Virus record (IMG/VR): IMGVR_UViG_3300042090_001979 | Span: 1 to 27,599 of that record | Source: a virus | Direction: 5' to 3' (one strand) | DNA: 27,599 nucleotides | Shown here: piece after piece, positions 1,951 to 24,055 of the stretch | How positions within the stretch are numbered: position 1 is the stretch's first letter | How the letters are laid out: every line of letters starts with the position of its first letter | Made by a program: the position numbers and the translations under genes | Notes under the pieces: generated by a model | What the model saw: only the letters and a program-made list of their open reading frames with translations | What the model was told of the DNA's origin: nothing | Database searches by the model: none

Positions 1951-2694
1951 TTAGCCGCCCGGGTTCAGTGCGACGCCCGGGAACGCGCGCGTGGGGAGCG
2001 GGGTGGACACGCCGAAGCGCGCGACGCAATCGCGCAGCCGCCGGCCGCACTGATCCAGCGCTGGATTTTCGGTCGAGACCGTGAACGCGGTGAAATAATC
2101 GCTGCCGGTGTAAGGGCAATTCTGCTGGATGAAGGTGCCGGTGCCGACGTCCCATACGCGGTAGCTGCGCGTGCAGACGCCTTGCAGGACCTGGCGGAAC
2201 GGAAGCTGCTTGCCCTCCTGGTCGGTCACGGCCGCGAGTTCCAGCTCGACGAAATTCTTGTCGGCGTGGCTTTTGCGGTCGACGCGGAAAATAGCGGGTT
2301 CCGACGTCGCGGTTGGATCGGCGTAGACTTGGCCATCGAGGAAGCAGGTAAAGGTCTGCACGTACGTCACGGTGGCGCCGAGCAGATCGTTGTTCGCGAT
2401 CACGAGCGCCATCGCATAATTAGTGCCGCCGGTGGGGCCCAGCACGTTGCTGATGCGCATCTTGGGCGATGGCAACGGACCCCGGCCATTCCATTCCAGC
2501 CCTTCGATGTCGATTGGCAGCGTCAGGTAGGTAGTGTCCGCCATGACGACGCCGCCGCTCCCGCTCTGCGTGAGCGGACCCGGCGTGAAATGATAGATGG
2601 TCCCGCCGATCAGCGTACAGTCGATCGTGAACAGATCGAGCAGCGGGTAGCCGGGCGCGAGTTTCTGAATAAGTTGCGGGAATTGAACGGACAT
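1951..2694 (-). CDS. Minor tail protein L (predicted Fe-S tail tip protein)
   Basis: A 247-residue lambda gpL-like minor tail protein, part of the tail tip complex that nucleates the tail tube. The opening (a QKLAPGYPLLDLFTID element), the central strands with EGLEWNGRGPLPSP and MRISNVLG, and the FLDGQVYADPTA segment fit the family. Four cysteines in the C-terminal third (Cys174, Cys193, Cys216, Cys223) have the layout of the four cysteines that hold a [4Fe-4S] cluster in lambda gpL, so a cluster is likely here too. In lambda, L directly follows M. Here 2.6 kb of cargo lies between them, and a terminator hairpin sits 57 bases before this start. The leader is shared with K. Confidence 0.94.
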   Translation of the reverse strand: MSVQFPQLIQKLAPGYPLLDLFTIDCTLIGGTIYHFTPGPLTQSGSGGVVMADTTYLTLPIDIEGLEWNGRGPLPSPKMRISNVLGPTGGTNYAMALVIANNDLLGATVTYVQTFTCFLDGQVYADPTATSEPAIFRVDRKSHADKNFVELELAAVTDQEGKQLPFRQVLQGVCTRSYRVWDVGTGTFIQQNCPYTGSDYFTAFTVSTENPALDQCGRRLRDCVARFGVSTPLPTRAFPGVALNPGG

Positions 2695-2731: not shown

Positions 2732-2750
2732 TATCGCCGAAACGCAAAAA

Positions 2751-2777
2751 CCCCCAGGCCCGCGGGGGGCCTGGGGG
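2751..2777 (-). terminator. Intrinsic terminator before L
   Basis: A perfect 11-bp stem (2751-2761 with 2767-2777) with a 5-base loop. On the minus strand it is followed by TTTTTGCG, and on the plus strand by a shorter GTTTG. It would stop minus-strand transcription coming from M and the cargo just before L, K, I and J unless it is bypassed. Confidence 0.85.
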
Positions 2778-2784
2778 TTTGCTG

Positions 2785-3329
2785 CTAGAAAGGTCGGCTC
2801 AAACGTCTGACGTCCGCCATGCTCATACCGGTTTCATGCGCGGCATCGGAAATCGATGGGTAGAGTACGCCCCTGACGATGCAGGGGCGAGCGCACCGAT
2901 CGATCTCGACTTCGGGCGGTTCAGGAGCCGCTTCCTTGGGTGGTGCAGTGTTGGTGGGCGGGGGCTGGCTAGACGTGTCTTCGGCAGCTTGTATCTACTC
3001 CACCCATTCGAACGTCGATGCGTGGCCGTTGACCTGAAACGCAGAGGGCTCTGCCCCTTGCTCTAGCATGCCCTCCAGGTCGGCAATCGCCAATTGTATG
3101 AGGGCACGGAACGACGGTGTGGACCATTGCTCGCCCAATCCATGGCCATTGCCAGCTTGGCGATGATCATGTCTGGGCTGCGGGCTGGTGTGCCGACGAT
3201 AGCGATTTCTGCCTCGTCGGCCAGACGCATGTAACGATCTGCTTCGGGCGCGTTGACTTTTGAGTGTGCCCAGAGCACCTTGTTGGTCGCCGCCTGGGAC
3301 AGGCGGCTAGGGATGTCATGTTGGTGCAT
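2785..3329 (-). pseudogene. Broken small gene beside the DUF262 cargo
   Basis: The intact-looking start MHQHDIPSRL at 3329 has a good AAGGA ribosome-binding site six bases upstream. The frame reads sensibly to AKLAMAMDW and then turns into poor sequence ending at 3063. Restoring one base in the GGG run at 3134-3136 returns the natural continuation GEQWSTPSFRALIQLAIADL through EWVE, which meets an amber codon at 2995-2997. The same frame then stays open to a TAG at 2785, encoding a Pro-rich linker and a segment (RGVLYPSISDAAHETGMS) that resembles a NUMOD1-like helix-turn-helix. No usual start codon lies directly after the amber. The simplest reading is one decayed gene with a 1-base deletion and a nonsense codon. 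Two adjacent small genes, or a sequencing error in the G run, are alternatives. The function is not recognised. Confidence 0.6.
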
Positions 3330-3343
3330 GATTGATCCTTCAG

Positions 3344-3369
3344 AGCCCGGCAGCACGAACTGCCGGGCT
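3344..3369 (-). promoter_or_regulatory. Hairpin in the leader of the broken companion gene
   Basis: A perfect 10-bp inverted repeat, AGCCCGGCAG with CTGCCGGGCT, around a 6-base loop. It ends 15 bases before the ATG at 3329 on the minus strand. There is no T-run on either side, so it is more likely a leader structure or protein-binding site than a terminator. A second, 7-bp hairpin (CCGCTGC / GCAGCGG, 3395-3412) lies just upstream. Confidence 0.45.
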
Positions 3370-3559
3370 TCCTGATGAGTTACCGATTCCTCGGCCGCTG
3401 CGCATGCAGCGGGACGACCGAAAGCCGTTTCTGGTGGTCAAATAGAAAATACCCACTATGCAACGAATAGCAAGAGCACCGATGCACAATCTTGGTTGGC
3501 GGCCTTAGGATACCGGCCCTGTTTACCATCAAAGCACCAGAAAGGAGAGGTAGCCCAAC

Positions 3560-5266
3560 TTGTTCGATCCAACTTTGAACGGTGTTATGGCACAGGTCGA
3601 GGCGGGTAGGATCGTCCTGCCCGCAATGCAGCGTCCGTTTGTCTGGAGGGACGATCGTATTGCGAGGCTGATCGACAGCCTGTTACGCGGATTTCCCATC
3701 GGGACTACGCTCCTATGGAAAACGGCAACGATGCAGCGCTTCCGGCGCTTCCAGAAGGACGTTCAATCGGATGCTGGTATCACCGTAGACTTCGATAGCG
3801 ATGACTCGTCTGAACGGTACCTTGTGCTTGATGGTCAGCAGAGACTGACCAGCCTGTTCGTAGCGCTCGCTGGCACCTATGATGGAAGAAAATTGTTTGT
3901 CGACACGCTTAGCGGCGTAAAGGGTGACAAGGACGCTGGCGACGCCTATTGGGACTGTCGATTCCTTACTGAGAAAGATGCGGCCGCTCTCAACGCCTGG
4001 CCACGGCCAGAGGGAGATAAAGCCGGGACGACGATAAGAACCGTATTCGTAAAATTTCAGGACTTAACAAAACTTCCCGCCGCAAAAGCAGGCGTCATTG
4101 CGACCAAGAGGGCGGCTGATTTGGGATTGGACCCCGCCTCGACGGAACGAATGACCGTGAGCTACCTGCAGTGCGCGACCGTGCTCGCAAGTAAGACTGC
4201 GCTTCAAGTGCATCTTATAGATGAAGATGCGTCCGAACCGATGCCTATTGAGGAAATCCTGGAAATATTTGTCCGGGTCAATTCTGGGGGGTTAGTGCTC
4301 CAGAAGTCGGACCTCTTGATGAGCCTATTGGACCTTAAGTGGAATGACATCCAGCCCGAACTCTACAGATCAGTGAACGAAATCAACCGCGAACGTCCAT
4401 TTACTATCACGCGCGATGACGTCTTAAAAGGCCTTTTGCTTGTTAATGGTTCCGACACGCGTTTTGACCGCTTGGTCGCCGATCGTGGTCGAGTCGAAAA
4501 GCTCGCGATTGAGCTTCCAAAATTGCTCCCTGCGGTATTGGCGGCCTGGAAGTCGTTGACCGCACTACTGATGGATGGATGCAAGATTACGTCGGAGCGG
4601 TTTTTTCGCGGCGGACACAATTCACTATTGCCGTTTGTTCTCTATTTTGTATTGAATCCTACGCCAAGCCCTGCGGAACGGCGGCGCCTCGTTGTCGCTG
4701 TGTACGTTGCGCTTATGAGTGGCATCTTCGCAGGTGCTGAGGCTCGAATGGGCGTGTTTGCTCGTAACGAATGTAAGGCGGGCCAACAATTTCCCCTGCA
4801 GAAGCTAATGCACTTCGTTGCGCAGCAATATGGGATCAACTCGCTCGAGACGCTCCTGGGGCGTCACCTTGATCTGACGTTAAACATTGCTCACGGTGGC
4901 ATTACGCTTAACAACAACCCAGACAATCTGCAGCGAGACCATATATTCCCCCGCGCGACTCTCGAAAAAGCGGGAACGTCGCCAGACCAAACTAACCATT
5001 ACGCCAACTTCCATTTTCTGCGCGGGAAAGATAATCTGAACAAGTCCGATACACCACCTCACGAGTGGTTCAAGAAGCCCGGAGAACAGCCGGCGTACTC
5101 GGACGAGGATTTAAAGGAGCGGTTGCTCACCTGGGATCTGTTGCAGCCTGGTAATTTCCCGAATTTGCTTTCGGAGCGGACAAAGCTGATACATGGACGC
5201 GCCGAAGCACTTTTCGGGATCAACGCAACCGACTTAGAGGCGCTATTCGCGCCGCCCACTGCATAG
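3560..5266 (+). CDS. DUF262 + HNH/DUF1524-like protein (GmrSD-type defence family)
   Basis: A 568-residue protein combining the two parts of GmrSD-type modification-dependent restriction systems. The N-terminal DUF262 part has VLPAMQRPFVW (residues 19-29), the nucleotide-binding signature LVLDGQQRLTSL with DGQQR at 91-95, and FVRVNSGG near residue 240. The C-terminal HNH/DUF1524-like part has DHIFP (Asp460, His461, Pro464) and the Asn-rich KDNLNKSD near 490. Members use NTP hydrolysis by DUF262 to drive DNA cleavage by the nuclease part, often against modified phage DNA; the target here is unknown. The start chosen is TTG at 3560, preceded by AAAGGAGAGG nine bases away; the next in-frame ATG is codon 10. 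It is the only plus-strand gene within the phage operon, convergent with the M gene, and of visibly lower GC than its neighbours, which suggests recent acquisition. No terminator is evident after it. Confidence 0.92.
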   Translation: MFDPTLNGVMAQVEAGRIVLPAMQRPFVWRDDRIARLIDSLLRGFPIGTTLLWKTATMQRFRRFQKDVQSDAGITVDFDSDDSSERYLVLDGQQRLTSLFVALAGTYDGRKLFVDTLSGVKGDKDAGDAYWDCRFLTEKDAAALNAWPRPEGDKAGTTIRTVFVKFQDLTKLPAAKAGVIATKRAADLGLDPASTERMTVSYLQCATVLASKTALQVHLIDEDASEPMPIEEILEIFVRVNSGGLVLQKSDLLMSLLDLKWNDIQPELYRSVNEINRERPFTITRDDVLKGLLLVNGSDTRFDRLVADRGRVEKLAIELPKLLPAVLAAWKSLTALLMDGCKITSERFFRGGHNSLLPFVLYFVLNPTPSPAERRRLVVAVYVALMSGIFAGAEARMGVFARNECKAGQQFPLQKLMHFVAQQYGINSLETLLGRHLDLTLNIAHGGITLNNNPDNLQRDHIFPRATLEKAGTSPDQTNHYANFHFLRGKDNLNKSDTPPHEWFKKPGEQPAYSDEDLKERLLTWDLLQPGNFPNLLSERTKLIHGRAEALFGINATDLEALFAPPTA

Positions 5267-5306
5267 CGAATCCAACTGTCTCTCGGTACTGCCCAGTTTC
5301 GAAGCC

Positions 5307-6056
5307 CTAAGTGGACAGGATAACCAACGAGAAGCTGATATTCGCCTGGTTCGCGTCGGCCGGCGTCGGGCACAGCATCGACAGCACGGTGCCCGCGGCG
5401 CCCGAGTAGGCGAACGAGCTATAAGTGGCGCCCGTGCCCGACCAGCTGATTGTCGCGATCGCGGTCTCGGCGCCGCCGACGATGGCCTGTAGTACCCATT
5501 CCGAGGTTTCCGCCGGCGCCACGCCGGAGAAGCCGGCCGAACCGACAAGGTTCGCGGCGATCGTGAAGGCGAACGGAATGATGACGTCTATCTGCTGACC
5601 GCTGCCAGGTAACCCCGAGACGATATACGGGATGACGAATTCCGTGCCTATCGTGCCGCCACCACCACTGCCGCCGCCGCCGCCGGACGGCAGTGCGTTG
5701 GCCGGCGTGTAATCCAGCGTGAGCTGCACGCCGTTGCCATAATAGTTCGCGCCATCGAACGTGCCGAGCGTGTAGCCGGTCAGCGTCCATTGGCGCACGA
5801 CGCTGTCGCCCGGCACCTGATAGAGGAACGGGATGCCGCCGATGTTGGCGTCGAAGAATTCCTGGATCGGCGCCCAAAGCGTGCCGGTGATGGCGGTCCA
5901 GCTCAAACTCACCGTGCGGCCGATATAGTTGATGCCGTCCGGCGTGCGCTGCACATAGCCGTCGCCGAAGTTGGTCGTGAGCAGGCGTGCGGTGACCTTC
6001 GCGCTGAAGCCGTCCTGGCTGGGCGCCTGCGGCGGATCGAACGTCGATATGGTCAC
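5307..6056 (-). CDS. Minor tail protein M-like
   Basis: A 249-residue protein whose first 110 residues fit the phage minor tail protein M family: TTNFGDGYVQRTPDGIN, VSLSWTAITG, IQEFFDANIGGIPFLYQVPG, QWTLTGYT and GVQLTLDYTP. In lambda, gpM closes the tail tip between H and L. After a Gly-run linker near residue 130 there is an extra beta-rich C-terminal half (EFVIPYIVSG to the end) that lambda M lacks, possibly an added surface domain. It starts at GTG (6056), and the GTGA overlaps the stop of the tape measure gene, so it is translationally coupled. Its stop lies 40 bases from the stop of the convergent DUF262 gene. Confidence 0.92.
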   Translation of the reverse strand: MTISTFDPPQAPSQDGFSAKVTARLLTTNFGDGYVQRTPDGINYIGRTVSLSWTAITGTLWAPIQEFFDANIGGIPFLYQVPGDSVVRQWTLTGYTLGTFDGANYYGNGVQLTLDYTPANALPSGGGGGSGGGGTIGTEFVIPYIVSGLPGSGQQIDVIIPFAFTIAANLVGSAGFSGVAPAETSEWVLQAIVGGAETAIATISWSGTGATYSSFAYSGAAGTVLSMLCPTPADANQANISFSLVILST

Positions 6057-18120: not shown

Positions 18121-18348
18121 GACTTGGTCCTTACGGTGTGAGGCGGCATGACCGTTGGTCGCGCGGGCTGACCCGCGCGTGGCCTGGTCCCGCCGTCCAG
18201 CCGCAAACCGAGTAAGTTTTTTTCGCCATCCGCCGGCGGCAGTGTCAGGCACGAGATTGAGCGGCGCGCCCTCCAGGTCGTACCGCTGCAGGCCCGTCGT
18301 CGGTGACGAGGGCGATACGAAAGTTGAGCCGGCGCCGGCGTCGCTCAT
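18121..18348 (-). other. In-frame leader with a capsid N-arm-like segment
   Basis: Seventy-six codons in frame with the scaffold start, beginning at an ATG whose ATGA overlaps the stop of the giant gene. Residues 8-39 (STFVSPSSPTTGLQRYDLEG onward) match the major capsid N-arm (starting NTFVSPTSATVGLQTYNLEA) at 16 of 32 positions. The second half is Arg/Ala-rich and not protein-like. It could be a longer scaffold isoform carrying a capsid mimic, or the remnant of a duplicated capsid 5' end. A separate 8-bp GC-rich hairpin (18160-18179) lies within it. Confidence 0.6.
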
Positions 18349-21300
18349 CTCGGGGGAATGCCTGGATCGCCCTGCGGCTGGCTGGGCGGCTGCGGCTGCT
18401 TCGTCGGGGTCTGCGGGCCGGCCGCGCGGCCGGGTGCCGTGCGCGGCGCCAGGGCGCGGTTCAGCGCGCGGCCCGCCTGTCCGCTGTCATGGCCGTCGAA
18501 ATACTGACTGATGCTCGATGCGGCGTCGTATATGTTGCGGCCGATCGCTCCACCGGCATAGCCGCCGGCCGCGCCCGCCGCGATCGTGCCGACGCCGCCG
18601 CCCCCTGCCCCCACGCCGCCGCCGATAATGCCACCGGCGATGCTGCCGAGCGTCTCGGCAACCTGCTCGCCCGTGCTGAGCTGCGGTGGCGCGTTGGGTG
18701 GCGCCTTGCCGCCGGCGACACGATAGGCTGCCTGGGCAGCGCCCTGGCCGACCACGCTGCCCGCCGCGAACCCGGTGATGCCGCCGAGGCTCGATCCCAA
18801 CGCCTTCGCGCCGGCCTTCGCGCCCTGTGCGGCGACAGTGCCCGCGGCGGCCGGAACACCGCCGGAGGCGAATGCGTTGCGGACCGCGCCGATCAGTTTG
18901 ATGCCGCCGGCTTCCTCCGGGAAGAAGCGGCTCAGGATGCTGCTGACGAGCTGGCCGGCGCCATAGGCACCTGCCTCACCGGCGATGAAGCCGCCGGCGT
19001 CACTGGCGACGCGCGTCGGATTGTAATTCGACGAAGTTGCCGGCGCGGTCTTTTCCTTTGGGCGGTTCAGGCGTGTGACGCCTTCCTCGACACCTTCGCG
19101 CGCCAGGCGCGCGCCGGCGCTGCCGCCCGCGGTCCACTCGCCCCCGCCGTCCTCGCCGCCCGGGATGCGCGCCTCGTTCGTGATCGCATCGACCGCGTCA
19201 CCGAGCAGGCCCTTCACCATCGCCGGCAAATCGTCGATGTGCAGCTTCTGCACGCCGCGGCGCCGCTCCAGGTCGTCGAGTTCCTTTCCGGCATGCGCAT
19301 CGAGCACGCTCGCGAAATGCGAAACGTCGACGTTCTTGATCGCCTCGCGCGCGCTCTGCTTGCTGCCGTTCTTCGCGATATCGTGGATCGCGTTGCTCGC
19401 CGCGCGCACCGATTCCTTCATCGGCAGTCCGTGCGTGCGGTGCAGGATGTGGGCGTAGGCCTCCAGCGCGGTCGCGATATCGGTCGGATCGTTCCGGCCA
19501 TCCATGCGCAGCGTCATGGCGAGGTTATTCGCCGGGCCGATCGACGTCTCGCGCAGTGCCCTTTTGTCCCACGGCGCCTTACTGCCATTGGCGTCGACGC
19601 CGCTGCTCTCGGGGAACAGTCGCTTGGTCGCCGGCTCCGGCGGCGTGTCTCCGCCGACCGGCGCGCCGCCGCGGATCTTCGTGTAGAGATCCTTCAGATC
19701 GCTGTCGGCGACACCCTTCTGCTTGCCCACGAGCGCGACGGCGCGCACCAGGTTCGTGCGCTGCGTCTCGTCGCGCGGCGGATGCACGCTCATGACGCGA
19801 TCGACTTCGGCGTGCAGCTCGTCCTTCACCTGCGCTTGCGTGGCGTTCTGCTCGGCGAAATCGCTGTCCTTGCCGGTATGGAACACGCCGGCATGGTTCG
19901 CCTTCTGGCCGCCCGTCGCGTAGCCGGTCAGCAGGCGATAGGCCTGCTTGGTTTTCAGGATCGGGCTCTGGTAGCTGCCGACAACGGAGCCGAGCGCGCC
20001 ATAATACCGTTCCGCATTCGATGGGGAGCCGTTCGCCAGGAACTGCTTCTCGATATGCTGCTGGACCTCGTCGCCGATTTTGTCCTTCGAGCTGTCGCCG
20101 TTCGGCCGGAAGCGGAGCTGGTGGCCTTCCTCGACCTGGATCGTGTGCGAGCGGTCGCGCAGCTCGTTCACTGCACCGCGGACTGCATTCTTTGTATCCT
20201 GCGACAGGCCAGGGATGTCGCCGAGCTGGGCGTTGCGGTTACCGCCGCCTCCGTCGCCTTTCCCCTGCTGCTCCTGCACCTTGCTACGTACAGCCGAGAC
20301 CCTGGCGCCGATATGCAATGGCTCGCCCGCCGCCATGGCATCCTTGTAGTGCTCGCCCCACAGCAGGACGCGCTCGTTTTTGTCACCGTCCGGATCCGGC
20401 ACCGACAAACCGACGAAGCCGCCGCCGGATTTCGGATCGACGTGCTTCTCGATCCTGATCGTGCGCGGAAATTTCGAGCGCGGCTCGCCCTTATCGTAGC
20501 CGAGCTGGTGCGCGACCTGGTCGCGGCCATAGCGATACGCGTCGCGCGCGGCCTCGCCGGCGACATAGGCCAGCGGGCTGCCGACGAGCAGCTTTTTCGG
20601 ATCGACCACGTATTTGCCGCTGCCCTCGGCCGTCTCGCGCATCGTCAGTGCGCGCGCCACGTCGCGGCCAGCATGATAGACGGTATCGGCAGCATGGCTG
20701 ACGTGCTCGGCGCCGGCCTGCGCGACGCTACGGATCGCGTTGCCGACCGGGCTGCGCAGGAACGCATGCACGGCATCGCGGCCACCGGCGGACGCGCGAT
20801 CGACGTCGCGCAGCAGCGCGCGATAGACGAGCTTCGGCATACGGCCAGGCTTCGCTTCCGGCTGCGCCATGACGCGATCGCGGAACGCGACGGCGTGCTT
20901 GCCGAGGCGGCGCTCGGCAAGCGCCGCGTGCGCGACGGCGATCTTGTGGTAGGCTTCGGCGCCAGCGACTTCGCCGGCGACCAGGTGCCCTTTCAGCACG
21001 AGCGCCGCGGCTTCCTCGGCATTGAGCCCCTTCGGGATCTTGCCGCGTTGCGCCTCTTTCAGCGAGGCAAGCAGCTGACGCGACAGGATCACATGGCGCA
21101 GCGCATCGACCTCTTTATCGTGCGCGTCCTCGAGCATGCGCGCGGCGACGAGCACACGCTTGCTGGCGCCGACCGCGTGCTCCGGAATGACATTGTTGCG
21201 GCGGCCAAGCAGCGCCTGCGCAGCCAGGAGGCGGTGGCCGCGCCCCTCGAATTTGGCGATTTGCCGCTCGCGCGCGGCTTCGACCGTCTGCTTGCTGGCG

Positions 21301-23450
21301 CCGAGCTGCTTTTTGATGCTCGCATCGACTTTCTTGCCCGCACGGGCCTCGGCTTCGCTGCGCGCTTTGATGTGCAGTGGCTGCAGCTCGGCCTGCGTCG
21401 CCGGTGGCACCGGCTGACCCGTCACCGGCGATATAACACCGGACGGCTTCGCGCGGTGCGTATCAAGCGCCTTCTGCGCCTTCGTCACGGCGCCGGCAGC
21501 CGCCGTCTCGGTTTCCTGCGCCTTCGTGTAGGCGGCGCCGGCGGCGGCATGCTCGGCATCGTTGCCGGCGCGATCGAGAACAGCCTTGGCATCGGACACG
21601 CCGCGTTTGGCGGTCTCCAGCCCGGCCTCGGCTTCCTTCACCTTGCCGTCTAGCGTTTCGAGTTTCTTGTTGTGCGCGGCCAGCTGATCGTCGACCGCGT
21701 CGATCGACGTCTGGCGCGTGCGCATCCAATGACGCGCGGTTTCCTGCTGCGCCGGCGTCATTTCCGCGATCGCGGATTCGAATTCCTGCGGCGAGGCACC
21801 ATCGACGGCTTTCAGCACCGCGTCGCGCGCCACCTGGTCGGCCTTACCGACGGCGCCGCCGGCCTGCGCGCGAACCTGCCCGATGGTTGGCCACTGTGAT
21901 GGCTTGCCCGGGCCCGGCACGCGGAATTCGTTGATTTGCGACAACGTGTTGGCCAGGCGGCCATTCACTTCGCGGCGCAGTTGTTCCTTGATATGCTGGT
22001 CGTGCGAGCCGGCATAGAGCGCCAGCCGGCGCGTTTCGGTTAGATATTCAGGATCCTTCGCCATGTGCTCGGCGATCGCGGCCGGGCGGCCGGTTTTCAG
22101 TTTCGCTTCGAGCGCCTTGTGCTCGGCGATCATGTCGGCGACGTGGCCGGTGCCCAGGTCCGAGCGTGCTGCGGCCAGTTTCTGATCGACGCGGCCGGCA
22201 CTACGCTGCACGGCCTGCGAGAGCGCGCGGATATTGCCGTGCTTCAGCGCCAGGTAGGCGGCAGCACCACCAGCCAGCGCGCCGGCGATGCCGGCACCGA
22301 CCGTCACGGCATTTGCACGGCTGGCGAAGCGCCCACGGGAATCGCGGTAGGGATCGCCGTGGCGCGTGCCCAACACTGCATGCGCGCCCTCGGCGGCGCC
22401 CGCCGCGCCAAGGCCGACGGCCGTCGCCGCTGCCGCGGGGAATAGGCGGCGAGCGATCTGCGCGTAGAAGCCACGTTTTTGCAGCGTGTCGCTCGGGGCA
22501 TATTTCGCGAGCAGATCGGCCACGCCATCGGCATCGGCGCGTTTCTGGATGGTGCGATAGGAGAACGCATCCACGCCGGCGCCGATCTGCTCCGGATCGA
22601 GCGGCGTCCCCACGATCGGCGCGGTCAGCGCGGCGCCAGCGCCGAATGAGAGACCGGCGCGCACGCCGGCGTGACGCAGACGCGCGACCACAGGGTTCGG
22701 ATGATCGCCGGCCGCGTGATCGATGCCTTGCAGGATGATATGCGCGCCGTGCGCAGCGCCCCATCCGAAGCCATGGCCTGCCTTCTCGCCCACTGATCCG
22801 ACCCCTCGCGTGAAAACGCCGGCAGCGCGATAGAACGAGCCTGGTTCGATCGGCTTTCCAACCGCGCGCGCGATTGGGCGCACGACACGCTCGGCGGCGC
22901 CGGCGGTTGGATAGGCAACGGTGGCCATCGGGATCGAGACGCTGTAGCGCCCGAGCAGCTTGCCGGCCTGAATGATTTTCGTGCCCGCGCCGCTGCCGGC
23001 GCCGCGGCGGATCAGCGGCAGAACGAGTGCCGCGCCAGCCGCCGTACCGAGCGCATTGCGCAGCCAGAAACCGCGCACTTCGTTGCGGCGCTCCGGAACA
23101 ATGTCGCTCGTCAGCGCGGCATACGCGGGGTTCGCGCGTTGAAGCTGGCGGTGCGCTGCGGCCGTGCTGGGCAGCGCCATGGCGATCGGAGCCTTGGAGC
23201 CGGAAAACTTACCCCCGTTGCCGCGGGGATGCTTTCCTTCATCGAAAACCTTAGCCAGCTTGCCCAGGTGGCGATCGACATTCGCCCACGCGGCAACCGT
23301 GCGTTCATCCTCGCTCGCGCCGTGGTAGCCGTGCGCGAAACGCTTCTTCAGGTCAGTCAGCTTCACGCGGTGGTCCGGGGTGGCCTCGTTGTGCTCGCGC
23401 ACACGCTTGGCGAGTGCCGCGATCAGTTCCGCCGAAAATTTCGGAGGCAT
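18345..23450 (-). CDS. Giant (1,701-aa) virion-associated protein, probable ejected protein
   Basis: A 1,701-residue protein beginning MPPKFSAELIAALAKRV at 23450, chosen because TGATG overlaps the protease stop; an in-frame ATG at 23501 would add 17 residues. It contains three short tags common in phage virion proteins: HPRGNGGKF (residues 74-82), YRDSRGRFAS (near 368) and RIPGGEDGGGEWTAGG (near 1425). At least four Gly/Ala-rich hydrophobic segments lie in residues 130-400, and two more in the C-terminal 190 residues (IAGGIIGGGVGAG). A long Ala/Lys/Glu coiled coil covers about 585-660. There is no recognisable enzyme motif. The mix of helical, membrane-active and coiled-coil parts resembles internal proteins that are ejected ahead of the DNA, or polyvalent proteins, but in a lambda-like order this place is normally empty. 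It is larger than the tape measure protein. Function is inferred, not shown. Confidence 0.85.
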   Translation of the reverse strand: MPPKFSAELIAALAKRVREHNEATPDHRVKLTDLKKRFAHGYHGASEDERTVAAWANVDRHLGKLAKVFDEGKHPRGNGGKFSGSKAPIAMALPSTAAAHRQLQRANPAYAALTSDIVPERRNEVRGFWLRNALGTAAGAALVLPLIRRGAGSGAGTKIIQAGKLLGRYSVSIPMATVAYPTAGAAERVVRPIARAVGKPIEPGSFYRAAGVFTRGVGSVGEKAGHGFGWGAAHGAHIILQGIDHAAGDHPNPVVARLRHAGVRAGLSFGAGAALTAPIVGTPLDPEQIGAGVDAFSYRTIQKRADADGVADLLAKYAPSDTLQKRGFYAQIARRLFPAAAATAVGLGAAGAAEGAHAVLGTRHGDPYRDSRGRFASRANAVTVGAGIAGALAGGAAAYLALKHGNIRALSQAVQRSAGRVDQKLAAARSDLGTGHVADMIAEHKALEAKLKTGRPAAIAEHMAKDPEYLTETRRLALYAGSHDQHIKEQLRREVNGRLANTLSQINEFRVPGPGKPSQWPTIGQVRAQAGGAVGKADQVARDAVLKAVDGASPQEFESAIAEMTPAQQETARHWMRTRQTSIDAVDDQLAAHNKKLETLDGKVKEAEAGLETAKRGVSDAKAVLDRAGNDAEHAAAGAAYTKAQETETAAAGAVTKAQKALDTHRAKPSGVISPVTGQPVPPATQAELQPLHIKARSEAEARAGKKVDASIKKQLGASKQTVEAARERQIAKFEGRGHRLLAAQALLGRRNNVIPEHAVGASKRVLVAARMLEDAHDKEVDALRHVILSRQLLASLKEAQRGKIPKGLNAEEAAALVLKGHLVAGEVAGAEAYHKIAVAHAALAERRLGKHAVAFRDRVMAQPEAKPGRMPKLVYRALLRDVDRASAGGRDAVHAFLRSPVGNAIRSVAQAGAEHVSHAADTVYHAGRDVARALTMRETAEGSGKYVVDPKKLLVGSPLAYVAGEAARDAYRYGRDQVAHQLGYDKGEPRSKFPRTIRIEKHVDPKSGGGFVGLSVPDPDGDKNERVLLWGEHYKDAMAAGEPLHIGARVSAVRSKVQEQQGKGDGGGGNRNAQLGDIPGLSQDTKNAVRGAVNELRDRSHTIQVEEGHQLRFRPNGDSSKDKIGDEVQQHIEKQFLANGSPSNAERYYGALGSVVGSYQSPILKTKQAYRLLTGYATGGQKANHAGVFHTGKDSDFAEQNATQAQVKDELHAEVDRVMSVHPPRDETQRTNLVRAVALVGKQKGVADSDLKDLYTKIRGGAPVGGDTPPEPATKRLFPESSGVDANGSKAPWDKRALRETSIGPANNLAMTLRMDGRNDPTDIATALEAYAHILHRTHGLPMKESVRAASNAIHDIAKNGSKQSAREAIKNVDVSHFASVLDAHAGKELDDLERRRGVQKLHIDDLPAMVKGLLGDAVDAITNEARIPGGEDGGGEWTAGGSAGARLAREGVEEGVTRLNRPKEKTAPATSSNYNPTRVASDAGGFIAGEAGAYGAGQLVSSILSRFFPEEAGGIKLIGAVRNAFASGGVPAAAGTVAAQGAKAGAKALGSSLGGITGFAAGSVVGQGAAQAAYRVAGGKAPPNAPPQLSTGEQVAETLGSIAGGIIGGGVGAGGGGVGTIAAGAAGGYAGGAIGRNIYDAASSISQYFDGHDSGQAGRALNRALAPRTAPGRAAGPQTPTKQPQPPSQPQGDPGIPPR

Positions 23451-24055
23451 CAGGCCGCCTTTTTCCAGAGCTGCGCGAAAGTGGGCGGCGCTGGTGTCCA
23501 AATCTCCGCAAAAGTGCGGGCGCGCCCGTGCAGCGTCAGCGTCGTGACGGTGCCATCGACCTTGACCAACTCGGCAATGCGCGCGCTCGTGATGCAGGGG
23601 CGATCGACGAGGCTGATTTCTTCGATGCGCGGCGTGTAGCGGATATGGCCCGGCAGGTTCGGGTCATTCCATTTGCGCAGGTAGCCGCCACCGATCGAGG
23701 CGCCGGTATAGGTCCCGGTCAGGCACTTGCGCCAATCCTGATCGTCGCTGACGTAGATGCAGAGATCCACGGCCTTATCGAGATCATGGAACTTCATTTC
23801 GCGCACGACACCGGACGCGGAATCGCGGCGGTGCATCGCGCGGATATTACCTTTCGACAGGCCACCGGAATTGCGCAACTGCTCGGCCGACCATGCCTCG
23901 AATTGCGGCACAGCCGACGCGTAATCCATGACCTCGCGCGCGCGGTCGGGCTCCTCGCGGGCGGCGCGCAGATAGACGAGGCGTTGCTCCTCGTCGATCT
24001 TGATCATCGGAACGAAGAAATCGAGGCGCTCCGCACCGCCGGGCTGGAAGTGCAT
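23450..24055 (-). CDS. Prohead protease (XkdF / S78-like)
   Basis: A 201-residue protein resembling the phage XkdF/prohead protease group, which trims capsid and scaffold during head maturation. It has the N-terminal strand pattern (QRLVYLRAA), SKGNIRAMHRRDSA with His75, the KAVDLCIYVSDD strand, and TPRIEEISLVDRP with Ser148. This is the His/Ser pair of the herpesvirus-protease-like fold. The GTYTGASIGGGYLRKW segment is usual for XkdF. The start at 24055 is 3 bases after the upstream stop, and its stop overlaps the giant gene by one base. Lambda's homologous place is gene C. The C-terminal 45 residues (after ITSARI) are an Arg/Trp-containing tail of unknown role. Confidence 0.82.
   Translation of the reverse strand: MHFQPGGAERLDFFVPMIKIDEEQRLVYLRAAREEPDRAREVMDYASAVPQFEAWSAEQLRNSGGLSKGNIRAMHRRDSASGVVREMKFHDLDKAVDLCIYVSDDQDWRKCLTGTYTGASIGGGYLRKWNDPNLPGHIRYTPRIEEISLVDRPCITSARIAELVKVDGTVTTLTLHGRARTFAEIWTPAPPTFAQLWKKAA

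What the first reader, a model, noticed from the sequence alone, without database searches (positions are those of the whole stretch)
2785..5300. DUF262-HNH defence cargo placed antisense inside the tail operon
Seen: the lambda-like order H-M-L-K-I-J is broken exactly between M and L by a plus-strand, lower-GC gene with DGQQR and DHIFP motifs and by a broken minus-strand companion. Known: DUF262 + DUF1524/HNH proteins include GmrSD-type restriction systems acting on modified phage DNA. Inferred: this is a superinfection-exclusion or defence moron carried by the prophage, expressed from its own TTG start with a strong ribosome site while the tail operon is silent. Tail M-L gaps are an unusual cargo site, since an opposing gene there could interfere with late transcription.
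Basis: partly seen in the sequence, partly recalled or inferred. Interest (0 to 1): 0.78.

Follow-up and report, generated by a model that had tools for sequence, protein, structure and literature searches.

The report
BrxU-type restriction gene in tail operon
A bacterial virus carries, backwards between two of its tail genes, a foreign gene for a DNA-cutting enzyme of the BrxU/GmrSD kind that bacteria use against viruses with chemically modified DNA; relatives have an empty site or a different backwards gene there, so the spot looks like a slot for swappable cargo.

Summary
A 568-aa plus-strand gene (3560-5266, TTG start, good ribosome site) sits between tail genes M and L of a lambda-like minus-strand tail operon. 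It is full-length HEC-05/BrxU-like: PADLOC HEC-05 E 1.3e-63, PDB profile hit BrxU E 4.4e-35, Foldseek E 2e-15, VIA-align Z 17.4. It keeps the QR, DGQQR, FxxxN and D-H-N-N motifs. A near-identical phage contig (L002) joins M directly to L, so the whole 2.57-kb block (2736-5306) is an insertion. A more distant relative (L003/L004) carries a different antisense gene at the same junction, next to an intact version of the small gene that is broken in the window and the same terminator. Among 79 M-L junctions, other inserts look mainly co-directional and structural. Best reading: a 'reverse moron', a modification-dependent (type IV) restriction nuclease carried as cargo, probably protecting the carrier cell from rival phages with modified cytosines. 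Family and placement are shown. Anti-phage activity, specificity, expression and lysogeny are inferred; no integrase or repressor was seen. Reverse morons in tail operons (HK97 gp23) and prophage-linked GmrSD are already known, so this is a new member of known kinds at a newly mapped, apparently swappable site.

The parts
3560..5266 (+). DUF262-HNH (HEC-05/BrxU-like) nuclease gene, TTG start, 568 aa
   Evidence: PF03235 E 8.7e-28; PADLOC HEC-05 E 1.3e-63 over residues 5-552; BrxU 7p9k E 4.4e-35, Foldseek 2.1e-15, VIA Z 17.4; conserved motifs; purifying selection across the family
3540..3550 (+). ribosome binding site GAAAGGAGAGG, 9 bases before TTG
   Evidence: sequence
2736..5306 (.). whole inserted block absent from the near-identical relative L002
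   Evidence: L002 1-1266 = window 6573-5308 (94%), L002 1272-4006 = window 2735-1 (97%), 5 bases between
2785..3329 (-). remnant of a small co-directional gene; frameshift near 3135 and in-frame TAG at 2995-2997
   Evidence: intact 164-aa homologue at L003:6724-7218 in the same place
3342..3413 (-). stem-loops just upstream of the small gene, also present in L003
   Evidence: RNAfold of both sequences, stems kept with a compensatory A-U to G-C change; two lineages only
2748..2780 (-). intrinsic terminator between the small gene and L, pointing in the late-transcription direction
   Evidence: scan (number found in the region is no more than shuffles give, but the same stem recurs in L003 with compensatory changes)
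5307..6056 (-). minor tail protein M (249 aa, with an extra C-terminal domain)
1951..2694 (-). minor tail protein L

Best explanation
The insert is a reverse moron: a foreign gene for a single-chain, BrxU-like (HEC-05) type IV restriction enzyme, placed on the opposite strand between tail genes M and L. Expected working, by homology: the DUF262 (ParB/Srx-fold) half binds and hydrolyses NTP and senses modified DNA, and the C-terminal His-Me (HNH) half cuts it, so a cell carrying this phage degrades the DNA of rival phages with modified cytosines, while this phage (presumably unmodified) is spared. The gene has its own ribosome site and lies antisense, so it could be made from its own promoter while the late operon is off. 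The forward terminator before L would isolate small-gene transcription, and late transcription would have to read through it by antitermination. Shown: gene, family, fold, motifs, insertion, empty site, alternative cargo. Inferred: expression, anti-phage activity, modified-cytosine target, lysogeny, antitermination.
For: Full-length HEC-05 match, and HEC-05 is equated with BrxU in PMC11411939. BrxU is the only significant PDB match by sequence and by fold (VIA Z 17.4 against 6.1 for the next, SspE). QR 24-25, RLIDS 36-40 (BrxU RLFDS), DGQQR 91-95, F237-N241, and D460-H461-N483-N492 in the window protein, nearly all invariant in 10 homologues. pN 0.13-0.20 against pS 0.74-0.84. Two chromosomal homologues sit beside candidate defence genes (L014: PDC-M11A E 3.6e-135 with an integrase-like ORF nearby; L008: PDC-S15 E 5.8e-91). 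Empty site in L002 and different antisense cargo in L003 at the same junction. HK97 precedent for reverse morons.
Against: No activity data. The nearest homologues are untested, and the match to BrxU is only about 22% identical, so the target modification may differ. The HNH half is modelled poorly (pLDDT under 50 in 452-464 and 480-510), Pfam finds no GmrSD_C domain, and BrxU N485 has no clear counterpart. No promoter-like site was found before the gene. No lysogeny gene was seen in the record.
Confidence: 0.7

Rival explanations
1. Passenger: the gene was picked up by illegitimate recombination and does nothing for this phage, being only a transient insertion.
For: Seen in one phage only; absent from L002 at 94-97% identity; foreign GC3; the neighbouring small gene is already broken.
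Against: The reading frame is intact over 568 codons, with family-wide conservation and all motifs; a different antisense gene occupies the same slot in L003, which suggests the slot is kept for cargo.
Confidence: 0.13
2. A DUF262-HNH nuclease with another target: phosphorothioate DNA (SspE/DndI-like) or unmodified competitor DNA, possibly working in lytic inter-phage competition and not in lysogeny.
For: SspE and DndI are the next fold matches (Z 5.6-6.1); DUF262 proteins sense several modifications (PMC10952713); no lysogeny gene in the record.
Against: The BrxU match is far stronger (Z 17.4; E 4.4e-35).
Confidence: 0.1
3. The antisense transcript, not the protein, is the functional product: reading on past 5266 without a terminator, it would pair with M and tape-measure mRNA of self or kin phages, as BTP1 STnc6030 does at its tailspike gene.
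For: No plus-strand terminator was found after 5266; precedent of an antisense RNA excluding superinfection (PMC7067206).
Against: Protein conservation across phyla without any tail operon; in L003 a quite different gene occupies the slot.
Confidence: 0.04
4. Assembly chimera: a bacterial gene wrongly joined into a phage contig.
For: Single metagenomic record; no second phage carries the same gene at M-L.
Against: Two independent joins would be needed, both inside the M-L junction; the insert also holds the small gene and terminator that L003 has in the same place.
Confidence: 0.03

Closest known systems
[quoted passage not shown]
   Same: single chain, DUF262 then HNH domain, DGQQR and DHI(Y/F)P motifs, fold match over most of the protein; works without a partner in known cases
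   Different: about 22% identity; here on a phage inside a tail operon and not in a BREX locus; activity unknown; N485 not matched
Eco94GmrSD / GmrS+GmrD
   Same: QR, DGQQR, FxxxN and D-H-N-N motifs (PMC4619093); the original gmrSD is thought to lie in a cryptic prophage
   Different: Pfam GmrSD_C not detected here; the closest characterised relative found is BrxU
HK97 gp23 'reverse moron' and gp15/gp22 morons with terminators
   Same: extra genes with terminators between lambda-like tail genes, one on the opposite strand
   Different: between I and J (gp22/gp23) or before H (gp15), small proteins; HK97 M and L are contiguous
BTP1 STnc6030 antisense RNA (PMC7067206)
   Same: product made antisense to tail-region genes that excludes related phage
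   Different: a non-coding RNA; here a conserved protein gene

Membership tests
GmrSD/BrxU (HEC-05) family | DUF262 (GmrSD_N) domain with DGQQR | tested here: met
   PF03235 98.2 bits, cut-off 33.2; D91-R95 invariant
GmrSD/BrxU (HEC-05) family | QR pair and FxxxN motif | tested here: met
   Q24-R25, F237 and N241 invariant in 10 homologues; motif list from PMC4619093
GmrSD/BrxU (HEC-05) family | C-terminal His-Me/HNH (DUF1524) with E/D-H-N-N | tested here: met
   D460, H461, N483, N492 invariant and aligned to BrxU DHIYP..N..N; but no Pfam GmrSD_C hit and low model confidence there
GmrSD/BrxU (HEC-05) family | same overall fold as BrxU | tested here: met
   Foldseek E 2.1e-15; VIA Z 17.4 over 430-436 residues; rmsd about 20 A, so the domain arrangement is not reproduced
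GmrSD/BrxU (HEC-05) family | cleaves modified DNA, NTP dependent; protects against phage | not testable with these tools
   needs bench work
Moron (reverse) in a tail operon | extra gene between phage genes that are contiguous in a relative | tested here: met
   L002 empty site
Moron (reverse) in a tail operon | distinct base composition | tested here: met
   GC3 0.597 against 0.76-0.85
Moron (reverse) in a tail operon | own promoter and terminator | tested here: inconclusive
   terminator only for the forward small gene (2780-2748); no promoter-like site before the gene and no plus-strand terminator after it
Prophage-encoded defence | carried by a temperate phage and expressed in the lysogen | tested here: inconclusive
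   no integrase or repressor among the proteins scanned; the record may be a fragment

The most novel reading that the evidence does not exclude
In this phage group the M-L junction is a standing cargo dock: stem-loops, a small protein and a read-through terminator form a fixed module, and an antisense gene next to M is exchanged (restriction nuclease, lipoprotein-like exclusion factor, or nothing). The small protein may regulate the divergent cargo gene, and its loss in the window would leave the nuclease unregulated.
Probability: 0.2. Interest if true: 0.6.

Novelty: new member of a known kind. Interest (0 to 1): 0.42.

Why it matters
It shows a BrxU-type enzyme, known from bacterial chromosomes and plasmids, moving on a phage, and maps a specific slot (between M and L) that can be scanned for unknown anti-phage genes. 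L003's unassigned lipoprotein-like cargo is an immediate candidate.

Tried and rejected
Close relatives of the nuclease in viral contigs: none by single-sequence scan; the profile scan gave 49 distant ones, none beside an M or L gene. Small-gene relatives: only L003/L004; none in annotated phages or in two samples of bacterial classes (these empty answers had no positive control); no Pfam or PHROG. I had thought its C-terminus resembled NUMOD1 from memory; no search supports this. L003's 209-aa cargo: no family, no phage hit, unusable single-sequence model (pLDDT 29). The host was not found: the best relatives of L in the sampled bacterial classes are only 43-46% identical. Rfam found nothing in the window. 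A search for HEC-05 together with PADLOC found no paper. I did not fetch Gifsy-2, a prophage of a pathogen that carries virulence genes, as a moron yardstick, and used HK97 instead.

Full report
What is there. The window is a 27,599-base virus record from a public virus collection. Its tail genes run on the minus strand in lambda-like order: tube, chaperone, tape measure, M, L, K, I, J. Between M (ending at 5307) and L (starting at 2694) lie 2.6 kb that do not belong to the standard set. The main item is a plus-strand gene, 3560-5266, 568 codons from a TTG preceded by GAAAGGAGAGG. The start is well supported: homologues in other genomes begin with ATG or GTG at the aligned position. Its GC3 is 0.597 against 0.76-0.85 for the tail genes.

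What the protein is. Pfam gives GmrSD_N (PF03235, E 8.7e-28). PADLOC gives HEC-05 over residues 5-552 (E 1.3e-63), with other HEC-05 models below and SspE and PD-T4-2 weaker. A profile of ten homologues finds one significant PDB sequence, 7P9K/7P9M (E 4.4e-35), with one stretch over DUF262 and a weak second one over DHIYP...PHEW. Foldseek names these entries as BrxU (E 2.1e-15), and VIA-align gives BrxU Z 17.4 over 430-436 residues, SspE about 6, DndI 5.6 and ParB 4.7. The rmsd is about 20 A, so the domains match but their relative placement does not, and the HNH end of the model is poor. Published text equates HEC-05 with BrxU and says that it works alone (PMC11411939). The defining motifs listed for GmrSD (PMC4619093) are all present and invariant in the ten homologues: Q24-R25, D91-GQQ-R95, F237...N241 and D460-H461-N483-N492. 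Pfam's GmrSD_C model does not hit, and BrxU N485 has no clear counterpart. I file it as a BrxU/HEC-05-type member by sequence and fold, with activity untested.

Where its relatives live. Fourteen genome loci in Proteobacteria, Planctomycetota, Chloroflexota, Acidobacteriota, Spirochaetota, Myxococcota and others carry homologues, most of 50-80% identity over nearly full length. The nearest rows to the window copy are a gammaproteobacterium, Paraburkholderia and Acidiphilium, but the forks are weakly supported. Two of these copies sit beside PADLOC candidate defence genes. Substitutions against relatives are mostly silent (pN 0.13-0.20, pS 0.74-0.84), so the protein is under selection across the family; this does not prove function in this phage.

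The insertion. Contig L002 matches the window at 94% up to the end of M and at 97% from just before L, with five bases between. The block 2736-5306 is therefore present in one phage and absent in a close relative. Contig L003 (L protein about 67% identical to the window's) has at the same junction a different minus-sense ORF of 209 aa (L003:5974-6603; GC3 0.478 against 0.747 for its L gene) with a lipoprotein-like start, then a small co-directional gene, then a terminator, then L. L004, near-identical to L003 where they overlap, begins inside this block, upstream of the small gene. The window keeps the small gene as a wreck (frameshift near 3135, TAG at 2995-2997) and the terminator at 2780-2748. 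Stems before the small gene and in the terminator are kept with compensating changes between the two lineages. So the junction has three observed states: empty, nuclease, lipoprotein-like.

How unusual it is. Among 79 loci with both M and L, the window included, 48 have gaps under 100 bases. In the others, the gap ORFs that I could read are mainly co-directional and look structural; apart from the window and L003, only L023 has a possible short antisense ORF that I noticed. None of 49 distant viral relatives of the nuclease lies beside M or L. But reverse morons in tail operons are known: HK97 has gp23, annotated as a reverse moron, and gp22 between I and J, and gp15 before the tape measure, with terminators. 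An antisense RNA in the tail region that excludes superinfection is also known (PMC7067206), and gmrSD was suspected to lie in a cryptic prophage.

How it probably works. By analogy with BrxU (PMC8565348; PMC12409352), DUF262 binds and hydrolyses NTP and senses modified DNA, and the HNH domain cuts it. The carrier cell would then be protected from phages with modified cytosines. The antisense position with its own ribosome site would let the gene be expressed while the late operon is off. The forward terminator before L should need antitermination in the late phase, as in lambda; this is from general knowledge and untested here. No promoter-like site was found before the gene, and lysogeny genes were not seen among the proteins scanned.

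Verdict. Observation confirmed; interpretation partly supported. A real, well-placed new member of two known kinds (BrxU-type enzyme; reverse moron) at a slot that appears swappable. Interest 0.42.

Noticed in passing
L003:5974-6603 (minus): Different antisense cargo at the same M-L junction: 209-aa protein with a lipoprotein-like start, low GC3, no match in Pfam, PHROGs or annotated phages; a candidate exclusion factor.
   Followed up: partly
window 2785-3329 (minus); L003:6724-7218: Small conserved gene with upstream stem-loops and a terminator, intact in L003 and broken in the window; no known family.
   Followed up: partly
window 5307-6056 (minus): M here and in L002 carries a glycine-rich linker and an extra C-terminal domain of about 110 residues that L003's 119-aa M lacks.
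   Followed up: no
window 18345-23501 (minus): 1718-aa alanine/glycine-rich protein of no known family, followed by a 527-aa unassigned protein, upstream of the head genes.
   Followed up: partly
L029, L030, L041 M-L gaps: Insertions of 2.4-3.1 kb between M and L that hold co-directional, apparently structural genes; L043/L044/L074/L075/L077/L101/L104 share a short protein starting (S/T)TIVTR(A/S)GKG there.
   Followed up: no
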